From: an uncultured Pelagibacteraceae bacterium
GTDB lineage: Bacteria > Pseudomonadota > Alphaproteobacteria > Pelagibacterales > Pelagibacteraceae
Direction: 5' to 3'
Assembly (NCBI GenBank): GCA_902605035.1
Contig: CACLBB010000004.1
Span: 30,576-94,575 of the forward strand
DNA: 64,000 bases
The notes under the pieces were generated by a model. That model ran no database searches. It had not been told where the DNA came from and saw only the letters and a program-made list of their open reading frames with translations. Below are positions 53,515 through 56,496 of the stretch, piece by piece. The stretch's first letter is position 1; the number at the start of each line of letters is the position of its first letter. Position numbers and translations under genes: made by a program.

Positions 53515-53875
53515 AAAAGGTTTTATGCAGAGTATTGGCGATTTGTCTTTTAAAAAGATAGATGAAACAAATTTTGAATTTAGTATCAAAATTTTAGAAA
53601 ATTTTTTAAATACCGGTGGTATCGCTCATGGTGGTTTTATCGCAACTATAGCTGACACCGGAATGGGAAATGCTGCTCATATTGCCGCTGGAAATAAAAG
53701 GTGTGTTACAATTAACTTGGACATTAAATTTATATCAGCTGGAAAACTGAACGAAAAATTAATTGGAAAAGTAAAAGTTTTAAAAAAAACAAATACACTA
53801 GTTTTTATTTCAAGTGAAATACACGGATTAGACAAAATTGTTGCAACTGCCTCGGGAACTTGGAAAATCCTTTAA
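53486..53875 (+). CDS. Hotdog-fold thioesterase (PaaI-like)
   Basis: A 129-residue hotdog-fold protein with the PaaI signature TGGIAHGGFIATIADTGMG, in which the HGG turn and following Asp form the thioesterase active site. LDIKFISAGKL follows. It probably hydrolyses acyl-CoA thioesters. ATG 53486 overlaps the EamA gene by 29 bases; an in-frame ATG at 53501 (MDETKKGFM) reduces the overlap and is equally possible. Substrate unknown. Confidence 0.87.
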   Translation: MIKKLMDETKKGFMQSIGDLSFKKIDETNFEFSIKILENFLNTGGIAHGGFIATIADTGMGNAAHIAAGNKRCVTINLDIKFISAGKLNEKLIGKVKVLKKTNTLVFISSEIHGLDKIVATASGTWKIL

Positions 53876-54021
53876 CTTTTTTTTCTCAACTTTTTAATTC
53901 CACAGTCTTTACACTTTACTGTTTCTGTTGATCCACCAGGTCCAAAGCTAAAATTAATATCTATCTTCTCAAATCTGTGGATACCAATATAACAAAATAA
54001 CAAATACAACCACTTGATCAT
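53872..54021 (-). CDS. 49-residue small protein with a CxxC pair
   Basis: A minus-strand frame from ATG 54021 to TAA 53872-53874. It has a hydrophobic N-terminal segment (about residues 4-14), a central FSFGPGGSTETVK, and a Cys pair CKDCG followed by a basic end (KKLRKKS). It overlaps the convergent thioesterase stop by four bases. The CxxC plus basic tail suggests a metal knuckle, although a zinc site would need two more ligands; a His and another Cys lie in the first third. No family is recognised. Confidence 0.55.
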   Translation of the reverse strand: MIKWLYLLFCYIGIHRFEKIDINFSFGPGGSTETVKCKDCGIKKLRKKS

Positions 54022-54052: not shown

Positions 54053-54059
54053 AAGGAGG
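54053..54059 (+). promoter_or_regulatory. Consensus Shine-Dalgarno for the 18-residue gene
   Basis: AAGGAGG, a full anti-16S match, lies 7 bases before ATG 54067. Most genes in this window have no such site, so it marks the following short frame as likely translated, and well translated. Confidence 0.7.
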
Positions 54060-54066
54060 TAATTAA

Positions 54067-54123
54067 ATGTCAGGTTGGGAAATACTAATAGTAGTAGCCA
54101 TTATATACGCAGTAGTAAATTAA
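54067..54123 (+). CDS. 18-residue hydrophobic microprotein
   Basis: The frame encodes MSGWEILIVVAIIYAVVN and stops at TAA 54121-54123. It is one short transmembrane-length hydrophobic segment with a polar cap (SGWE). A consensus ribosome site at ideal spacing and a plausible promoter precede it. It stands alone between the thioesterase and the convergent TRAP permease gene. It could be a small membrane regulator, for instance of the adjacent transporter, or a type I toxin-like peptide; nothing in the sequence decides this. Confidence 0.6.
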   Translation: MSGWEILIVVAIIYAVVN

Positions 54124-54159: not shown

Positions 54160-56496
54160 TTAAAAGGGTATCTTTTTTCCAAATTTAAAATTTGTATATC
54201 CAAAAATTATTAATAGTAATATTGCAAAAGGATAAACTATAGATTTATTTGGTCTTTCTGGATTTTCAATTTTAAAATTGCTTATGATGTCACCCATTTG
54301 AATGCCAGATTTTTTTGCCTCCCCTTTCCAATTTAATTTATCAACAATAAGTTGTTCATTCTGATCTACTAATGTCACTCCGTATTCTTCAAGATTGTAA
54401 TCATTTTCAAACTTCCCTTTATCAATAACAAACAGTTTATATCTTTCTCCGTATTCAGTAACTCGAGTTACTTTTATGTGAACTTCATTTGAGGGATCAA
54501 AAGATAAATTTTGAATACTTTCTGCTGAGAGCTTTTGTTCATTGAATTTTGGATAGAATTTACCTAGTACATAGTCTGGAGCTAAGAAGGATAAAGATAT
54601 GATTAAAAAAGCTATAGTTTCGTACCACCTTAATTTATTTATGAACCATTGTTGTGTGGCTGCAGTAAAAACTAAAATACCAATTAGAGAAGTTGCTATT
54701 ACTAATAAAGCTTGCCAGATGCTATCTACGCCGATTAATAAAAGCTCATGATTAAATAAAAAAACTATAGGTAAGATCCCGGTTCTTAAACTATACCAAA
54801 TAGCTTGAAGCCCTGTTCTTAGAGGATCGCCACCAGAAATTGCTGCTGCTGCATATGATGCCAAACCAACTGGAGGTGTAACATCGGCCATCAATCCAAA
54901 GTAAAATACAAACAAATGAACCGCGATTAACGGAAAAATAAAGCCTGAAGCATTTCCAACATCAACTAAGACTGTTGCCATTAACGATGCCACTACAACA
55001 TAATTTGCGGTCGTAGGTAGACCCATTCCAAGAAGTAAACAAAGAATAATAGTTAATAAAATTAATATAATTACATTATCTCTAGCTATCGTCTCGATGA
55101 CTATAATTAAATTTGTACTTAATCCTGTAGATCCAACTGCTCCTACAATTATACCTGCGGTAGCGATTGCTATTCCAACTCCAACCATATTAATCGCACC
55201 TTTTTGAAGACCTACAATAGTTTGGTTCCACCACTCGATTAATCCAATTTTATAATCTGAGTTTTTGATAATACGATTTATCAAATTCACTAAGATTAAA
55301 GATATCGTAGCATAAAAAATTGAAAAACCTGCCGTGTATCTCATGTAGACAAGTAAAAAAATTAATACAAAAATTGGTATTAAAAAATGTAGTCCAGATA
55401 AAAAGGTTCTCTTAAGATGAGGAACATCAGCATCATCCATTCCTTTAAGCCCTAATTTAAGAGCCTCTAGATGGGATATATAAAATAAAGCAATGTATGA
55501 AATGATGGCTGGTAAAAAAGCATGTTTGACAACTTCAAAATAAGTAACGCCTATAAAACTTGCCATAACGAAAGCCGCGGCTCCCATAACTGGTGGCATA
55601 ATTTGTCCGTTTACAGATGATGAAACTTCAATTGCTCCAGCTTTCTCTTGGGAGAAACCAGTTTTTTTCATTATAGGAATTGTAAAAGTTCCTGTTGTGA
55701 CTGTATTTGCTATTGAAGAGCCCGAAATCATACCTGTCATTCCAGATCCTAAAATAGCAGCTTTAGCTGGACCACCTCGCATCTTACCAACCATGGCAAA
55801 TGCTAAATCTAAGAAATATTTTCCTCCTCCAGCTGTTTCTAGTAAAGCTCCAAAAAGAACGAATAAAAATATAAAATCAACAGAAACACCTATAGGTATT
55901 CCAAAAATAGCTTCTTGATCAAACCATTGGAAACCAACTAATCTTTTAACAGATAGACCCCCATGAGAAATAATATCTGGCGCATATTTACCAAAATAAG
56001 AAAATAAAAGAAAACAGATTGCGATTATTACTAATGGTAATCCGATTGCTCTTCTTGTGGCCTCTAACAGTATTAAAATACCTGTTGCCCCAATAATAAG
56101 CTCTACAGGAACTTTAAATCCAAATATCTCTTTAACTAAAAGTATCCCTCCCCTATTAACAAGATCATCATAGAAAAAATAAATATAAAGACAGCAGAAT
56201 GCAGCTATAATACTTATAAGAATATCGAAAACTGATATTTTTTTTCCTCTTACTATCGGAAAAATTAAAAATGTTAGTGTTAAAGCAAACCCGAGATGTA
56301 TGGCTCTAGCGGGTAAGCCTTTGAACATTCCAAAGTTTAACCAAAAAGGAAAAGGAGAAGCATACCAAAGCTGAAACAATGTCCAGAGAATAGCTATCCC
56401 AAAAACTATCTTTAAATGAATACCTGATAAATTTCTTGTTGGTGAAATATCTTCTTGAATTTTGTCTTTAATCTTACTTTGAATAGTTTGATTCAT
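54160..56496 (-). CDS. TRAP transporter fused permease (4TM/12TM), TAXI type
   Basis: A 778-residue fusion of the small (DctQ-like) and large (DctM-like) TRAP membrane subunits, with about 16-18 hydrophobic helices. The DctM part includes GSGMTGMISGSSIANTVTTG and GLPTTANYVVVASLM, and a second half with MADVTPPVGLASYAAAA, all typical of the TAXI branch. The C-terminal soluble stretch (about 655-760) corresponds to the DUF3394 region of such permeases. Uptake is driven by an ion gradient using the TAXI binding protein encoded upstream. The substrate is unknown. Confidence 0.93.
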   Translation of the reverse strand: MNQTIQSKIKDKIQEDISPTRNLSGIHLKIVFGIAILWTLFQLWYASPFPFWLNFGMFKGLPARAIHLGFALTLTFLIFPIVRGKKISVFDILISIIAAFCCLYIYFFYDDLVNRGGILLVKEIFGFKVPVELIIGATGILILLEATRRAIGLPLVIIAICFLLFSYFGKYAPDIISHGGLSVKRLVGFQWFDQEAIFGIPIGVSVDFIFLFVLFGALLETAGGGKYFLDLAFAMVGKMRGGPAKAAILGSGMTGMISGSSIANTVTTGTFTIPIMKKTGFSQEKAGAIEVSSSVNGQIMPPVMGAAAFVMASFIGVTYFEVVKHAFLPAIISYIALFYISHLEALKLGLKGMDDADVPHLKRTFLSGLHFLIPIFVLIFLLVYMRYTAGFSIFYATISLILVNLINRIIKNSDYKIGLIEWWNQTIVGLQKGAINMVGVGIAIATAGIIVGAVGSTGLSTNLIIVIETIARDNVIILILLTIILCLLLGMGLPTTANYVVVASLMATVLVDVGNASGFIFPLIAVHLFVFYFGLMADVTPPVGLASYAAAAISGGDPLRTGLQAIWYSLRTGILPIVFLFNHELLLIGVDSIWQALLVIATSLIGILVFTAATQQWFINKLRWYETIAFLIISLSFLAPDYVLGKFYPKFNEQKLSAESIQNLSFDPSNEVHIKVTRVTEYGERYKLFVIDKGKFENDYNLEEYGVTLVDQNEQLIVDKLNWKGEAKKSGIQMGDIISNFKIENPERPNKSIVYPFAILLLIIFGYTNFKFGKKIPF

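What the first reader, a model, noticed from the sequence alone, without database searches (positions are those of the whole stretch)
54053..54123. 18-residue membrane microprotein with consensus ribosome site
MSGWEILIVVAIIYAVVN is preceded by AAGGAGG at 7 bases and a plausible promoter, in a genome where most genes lack Shine-Dalgarno sites. Such a short gene would escape standard gene finders. It lies next to the fused TRAP permease and may be a small regulator of a membrane protein, or a toxin-like peptide.
Basis: partly seen in the sequence, partly recalled or inferred. Interest (0 to 1): 0.6.

Follow-up and report, generated by a model that had tools for sequence, protein, structure and literature searches.

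The report
Hidden 18-residue membrane peptide gene, SAR11
A gene only 18 codons long in the abundant ocean bacterium SAR11 is real: its reading frame and strong ribosome-binding site are conserved in dozens of relatives at several different chromosomal places, so these streamlined genomes carry a tiny, overlooked membrane peptide whose job is unknown.

Summary
MSGWEILIVVAIIYAVVN (54067-54123, +) follows AAGGAGG by 7 bases, in a genome where GGAGG precedes about 0.5% of long ORFs. SD and ORF are islands of conservation (74-78% identity against 43-50% around them), third codon positions vary most, pN/pS is 0.42 (0.30-0.56), and Ser2 is written with both TCN and AGY codons. At least 62 of 169 congeneric genomes carry it, and so do other genera of the family; a scan of 84,980 species found the MSGWEIL form as a stand-alone gene only in SAR11 records.

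The suggested link to the TRAP permease fails. The gene is missing beside the TRAP-side neighbour in 14 of 45 relatives, and elsewhere it sits behind tRNA-Ser, inside an array of duplicated tmRNA 3' ends, or at other places. It is a self-contained mini-gene that changes position. The product is a hydrophobic helix with one invariant glutamate and no positive charge: most likely a small membrane accessory or regulatory peptide (partner unknown), less likely a toxin-like or mobile-cassette peptide. Type IV pilin mimicry is not supported: 57 of 62 carriers lack detectable pilins. Resemblance to TatB is not specific. Existence of the gene: about 0.95; function: unproven.

The parts
54067..54123 (+). 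18-codon micro-ORF MSGWEILIVVAIIYAVVN
   Evidence: Sequence; frame and sequence conserved in dozens of relatives; pN/pS 0.42, CI 0.30-0.56
54053..54059 (+). Shine-Dalgarno AAGGAGG (extended GGAGGTAAT 54055-54063), 7 bases before ATG
   Evidence: GGRGGTAAT kept in nearly all relatives at this site; identity 0.745 against about 0.47 upstream; strong SDs rare in this genome
54019..54024 (+). candidate -10 box CATAAT (overlaps the start codon of the divergent 49-aa gene)
   Evidence: Pattern match not above chance; CATAATTNTAAC conserved in relatives but ambiguous
53872..54021 (-). divergent 49-aa gene with a C..H..CxxC pattern (MIKWLYLLFCYIGIHRFEK...CKDCG), possible zinc-ribbon-like; no Pfam match
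   Evidence: in 45 of 101 congeneric genomes sampled, 31 of them with a micro-ORF beside it
54160..56496 (-). fused TRAP (TAXI-type) permease DctM + DUF3394, convergent with the micro-ORF; neighbour, not a required partner
   Evidence: Pfam PF06808, PF11874; synteny

Best explanation
It is a genuine, unannotated protein-coding micro-gene: a short stand-alone gene with a near-perfect SD and an 18-residue product. SHOWN: coding-type conservation of the frame; conserved SD; one copy per genome as a rule; product about 14-20 residues, N-terminus mostly S-G-(W/F/L/V)-E, then 12-13 hydrophobic residues, no positive charge in the core; at least four different genomic positions, so it does not depend on one neighbour. 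INFERRED: the peptide is made at a high rate, inserts into the inner membrane as one short helix (fMet-Ser-Gly-Trp and Glu5 at the interface), and acts through the conserved N-terminal face and Glu5 as an accessory or regulatory subunit of a membrane protein complex of unknown identity. The complex is not encoded next to it.
For: SD and ORF identity 0.745/0.784 against 0.43-0.50 in flanks; codon-position identities 0.774/0.886/0.627. pN/pS 0.33 in 23 distinct sequences, permutation p=0.0008 for the third-position excess; 0.42 (bootstrap 0.30-0.56) in 68 sequences, codons 2-7 0.28. Ser2 as TCN in 37 and AGY in 27 sequences; Glu5 in all 68 (the set was collected with a motif that requires Glu5; diverged copies in G049, G014 and G039 shift or lack it); 1 charged residue in 884 beyond Glu5. 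Strong matches in 62 of 169 congeneric genomes, and in g6, g9, g10, g12 of the same family. Pattern scan of 84,980 species: 40 of 43 hits are SAR11/Pelagibacteraceae micro-ORFs; the other 3 are N-termini of larger proteins. No reliance on TRAP: positions after tRNA-Ser(GGA), near ssrA and elsewhere. SD weakly structured. Known small membrane proteins are often regulators of transporters and signalling (PMC11539335, PMC7267776; abstracts).
Against: No expression data; nothing shows that the peptide is made or where it goes. Distribution is patchy: absent, or too diverged to find, in roughly 60% of congeneric draft genomes and most other SAR11, so it is not a universal subunit. One relative (G066) has a stop at codon 4 (L137). 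The hydrophobic core tolerates wide substitution (pN/pS 0.53), as membrane toxins do. Moving between tRNA and tmRNA flanks is more like cargo or a selfish element than a fixed subunit.
Confidence: 0.55

Rival explanations
1. A toxin-like or addiction peptide (type I toxin-like, Ibs-sized) or an anti-phage cassette peptide that acts on the membrane and rides in tRNA/tmRNA-flanking insertion sites.
For: Size and hydrophobicity match IbsC (19 aa; 15 residues with at least 10 hydrophobic ones suffice for toxicity, PMC8309996); patchy distribution; in many genomes it lies in the hypervariable array of duplicated ssrA 3' ends; five other unrelated-looking SD-led hydrophobic 16-21-mers sit 16-18 nt before the same hairpin; tandem copies in G009 and G425.
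Against: No antisense RNA gene found or tested; the SD is exposed and the leader barely structured; sequence strongly constrained at the N-terminus (pN/pS 0.28), whereas type I toxins show little sequence conservation; no positively charged C-terminus, though IbsC, ShoB and DinQ also lack one (PMC8309996).
Confidence: 0.22
2. It mimics or joins the Tat translocase: a TatA/B-like transmembrane helix without the amphipathic part, binding TatC through its glutamate.
For: Among 1,252 ORF N-termini of the own genome, TatB (MPQIGWLEILAVVIVAILVLGPKEF) ranks second against the micro-family profile, 14.3 bits; both have a Glu before a short hydrophobic run.
Against: A type IV pilin ranks first (14.6 bits) and a PnuC-like N-terminus shares MSGWEILAVV exactly (L175), so the likeness is not specific. 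Tat is detected in 113 of 169 draft genomes, with or without the micro-gene, so co-occurrence tells nothing.
Confidence: 0.07
3. A leaderless mimic of the mature type IV pilin N-terminal helix (Glu5 at the same position) that acts on pilus assembly.
For: Top profile match in the genome is a prepilin, mature start FTLIELLVVVAIIGILAAV.
Against: Prepilin N-terminal motif PF07963 is found in only 12 of 169 genomes; 57 of 62 micro-carriers have none detected, including G197 (98% complete), G172, G166 and G062.
Confidence: 0.03
4. Not a peptide gene: an RNA element, a leader or attenuator peptide, or chance.
For: Short AT-rich intergenic setting.
Against: Codon-pattern conservation; at the window site the next gene downstream is convergent, so there is nothing to attenuate; chance expectation near 0; no Rfam match at the site.
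Confidence: 0.03

Closest known systems
Bacterial small membrane proteins (AcrZ, MgtS, YohP and others; PMC11539335, PMC7267776, PMC12719787)
   Same: Single short hydrophobic segment, own mini-gene, missed by gene finders, conserved without catalytic residues.
   Different: Even shorter (18 aa); no known partner; no neighbour link; in SAR11, whose genes mostly lack SD sites; moves between tRNA/tmRNA flanks.
Type I toxins of the Ibs kind (IbsC, 19 aa; PMC8309996)
   Same: Length, hydrophobicity, tolerance of the core to substitution, occasional tandem copies.
   Different: Conserved N-terminal SG(W)E; exposed SD; no antisense RNA identified; toxicity not tested.
TatB / TatA transmembrane helix (PF02416)
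   Same: Glu before a short hydrophobic run, EILAVV in common with the host's TatB.
   Different: No GP hinge, no amphipathic helix; the likeness is shared with pilins and PnuC, so not specific.
Mature type IV pilin N-terminus (PF07963)
   Same: Glu at position 5 and VVAII core.
   Different: No prepilin leader, no globular domain; most carriers have no detectable pilins.

Membership tests
bacterial small membrane protein (under 50 aa) | protein-coding conservation of the frame | tested here: met
   pN/pS, codon-position identity, Ser codon-box switch
bacterial small membrane protein (under 50 aa) | hydrophobic transmembrane-type segment | tested here: met
   99.6% of residues 6-17 in the set AVILMFYWCGT, 1 charged residue in 884 after Glu5; true membrane insertion not tested
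bacterial small membrane protein (under 50 aa) | translated and located in the membrane | not testable with these tools
   needs ribosome profiling, proteomics or tagging
type I toxin-antitoxin (Ibs-like) | antisense RNA antitoxin encoded opposite or nearby | not tested
   only a promoter-pattern scan, not above chance; no RNA-seq
type I toxin-antitoxin (Ibs-like) | translation of the toxin mRNA normally held back by structure or antisense | tested here: inconclusive
   leader barely structured, SD weakly paired; antisense not tested
type I toxin-antitoxin (Ibs-like) | overexpression is toxic | not testable with these tools
   needs an expression experiment
Tat A/B/E | TM helix plus hinge plus amphipathic helix | tested here: not met
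   ORF ends after the hydrophobic run in all sequences
type IV pilin | prepilin leader and N-methylation motif with downstream domain | tested here: not met
   starts with Met at mature position 1, 18 aa only
type IV pilin | occurs in genomes with type IV pilus genes | tested here: not met
   57 of 62 carriers have no PF07963 match; drafts, so some may be missed
TRAP transporter small subunit or accessory | linkage to TRAP genes | tested here: not met
   family found at tRNA-Ser, ssrA and other sites; TRAP without the micro-ORF in many relatives

The most novel reading that the evidence does not exclude
SAR11 genomes carry a mobile class of SD-led hydrophobic 14-21-residue peptide genes that hop between tRNA-Ser, ssrA and other sites; near ssrA they are coupled to copies of the tmRNA 3' hairpin and form the end modules of a cassette array grown by duplicating the tmRNA 3' end, possibly as anti-phage or addiction peptides.
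Probability: 0.2. Interest if true: 0.82.

Novelty: new member of a known kind. Interest (0 to 1): 0.62.

Why it matters
SAR11 is among the most abundant bacteria and its genomes are called extremely compact. A conserved 18-codon gene with one of the strongest ribosome sites in such a genome shows that annotation misses functional genes there, and gives a defined target for ribosome profiling and small-protein proteomics. The association of such genes with tRNA-Ser and duplicated tmRNA 3' ends also points to an unrecognised insertion hotspot.

Tried and rejected
TRAP partner: rejected by synteny. Type IV pilin mimic: raised by the profile scan, then not supported by co-occurrence. Tat: co-occurrence uninformative because Tat is general in the genus. 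Attenuator or leader peptide: nothing downstream on the strand at the window site. Structured RNA: no Rfam match at the site; mRNA fold not better than shuffles. Phage origin: no match to the pattern in viral contigs. Literature: nothing found on small ORFs in SAR11 in the library held. One row of the first profile alignment (A2) was shortened by one codon by me; it served only to build search model R1, and R2 and R3 used unaltered sequences.

Full report
Observation. The ORF, the AAGGAGG and the 7-base spacing are as described. I put together 991,812 bases of the same assembly from stretches. Of 931 ORFs of at least 100 aa, 5 have GGAGG and 32 any strong 5-mer SD upstream of the first ATG (start choice is crude, so these are estimates). 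AGGAGG plus a 14-25 aa hydrophobic ORF occurs once in intergenic DNA and never in 60 simulations. The promoter is not better than chance by pattern.

Conservation. A divergent 49-aa ORF (53872-54021, minus) served as anchor; it is found in 45 of 101 congeneric genomes sampled. In 31 of these 45 the adjoining space holds a micro-ORF with GGRGGTAAT and mostly MSGWEIL..., e.g. MSGWEILIVVAIIYAIVN, MSGWEILIVLAIVYAIVN, MTGVEVIVVTFIVFAFLNQ; in 14 the 49-aa gene stands without it, in most of them directly behind TRAP. G009 has two in tandem. Identity is 0.745 in the SD stretch and 0.784 in the ORF, against 0.43-0.50 on both sides; codon positions 0.774/0.886/0.627. pN/pS is 0.33 (23 sequences) and 0.42 (0.30-0.56, 68 sequences). 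Serine 2 is kept through both codon boxes. Glu5 is in all 68, but those were gathered with a motif that asks for Glu5; more diverged copies at the same site (MEILAVVILLVLVM, MLEILIVIVVIAAIV, MSMLVFVVITYVIINS) shift or lack it.

Distribution. Sequence-only profiles of SD+ORF find strong matches (E at most 7e-6) in 62 of 169 congeneric genomes. A broader profile over 397 genomes of the order gives a clear gap: all matches but one have E of 2e-10 or better, with carriers in genera g1, g6, g9, g10 and g12 of one family and none in the other family. A pattern scan of 84,980 species returned 43 places: 40 are stand-alone micro-ORFs in records named Pelagibacteraceae or Pelagibacterales; the other three continue into larger proteins. 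No viral contig matched.

Position. Besides the window site, the gene follows tRNA-Ser(GGA) (G063, G142, G027, G060, G087), sits within a few kb of ssrA directly before a copy of the tmRNA 3' hairpin GGGGCACCTRGCAACAGAACGCCCC (G007, G148, G189, G180; the same hairpin follows it in G172, G141, G077), or lies elsewhere. At several of these other sites a TATAAT box lies about 20-25 nt before the SD. Hence neither TRAP nor the 49-aa gene is an obligate partner.

The ssrA array. The hairpin occurs 1-4 times per genome, nearly always on one strand and within a few kb; the first copy is the tmRNA itself, later copies delimit variable small genes. Such duplications of a tmRNA 3' end are what site-specific insertion leaves behind (inference; no integrase was looked for). 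Five other SD-led hydrophobic ORFs (MAEVFIVIVIIGYFFG, MIEVLILVMALAMITN, MLMVLIGLVVLTAFIN, METFVFGVIVIGIVLHFFG, MDPVVTIAALIAFAYLLDSII) end 16-18 nt before such a hairpin; their own conservation was not tested.

Function. The product is a 12-13 residue hydrophobic run after SG(W)E, net negative. A profile scan of the host's ORFs ranks a prepilin and TatB first. The pilin idea fails the co-occurrence test (12 of 169 genomes have PF07963, 57 of 62 carriers none), and a PnuC-like start shares MSGWEILAVV, so sequence likeness does not name a partner. I take a membrane accessory or regulatory peptide as most likely, with a toxin-like or cassette peptide as the main rival. IbsC, 19 aa, shows that peptides of this size can act on the membrane (PMC8309996). 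Expression, location and partner remain untested.

Limits. Genomes are mostly incomplete single-cell or metagenome drafts, so absence is uncertain; diverged versions (e.g. G049, G039) escape the profiles, so 62 of 169 is a lower bound. Pairwise pN/pS over related sequences is not tree-corrected.

Noticed in passing
L125-L131, L242-L261 (downstream of ssrA in congeneric genomes): The tmRNA 3' hairpin is duplicated, 1-4 copies mostly on the same strand within a few kb, separated by variable small genes: looks like an insertion hotspot or cassette array at ssrA.
   Followed up: partly
L244, L247, L248, L249, L255: Five unrelated-looking SD-led hydrophobic ORFs of 16-21 aa, each ending 16-18 nt before a tmRNA-type hairpin.
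   Followed up: partly
L322 (G425:C2:5025-5202) and L005 (G009): Tandem micro-ORF copies: two identical MGALEVIAVVAVLYWFMNK in G425; MEILIMVLIVVALTK followed by MSGWEILIVVAIIYAIAN in G009.
   Followed up: no
L137 (G066:C22:7213-7278): A relative's copy carries a premature stop at codon 4; another GGAGGTTA follows just before the contig ends.
   Followed up: no
53872-54021: 49-aa minus-strand gene with C..H..CxxC pattern, conserved in about half of the congeneric genomes sampled, no Pfam match.
   Followed up: partly
whole genus: Prepilin N-terminal motif found in only 12 of 169 genomes, yet 6 copies in this genome (contig C3): type IV pili look like a patchy accessory trait here.
   Followed up: no
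G000:C9:42524-42577 (outside the window): Another intergenic ORF of this genome with a consensus SD (AGGAGGTATCT), MKTKILNQNSKQLKKNF, basic rather than hydrophobic.
   Followed up: no
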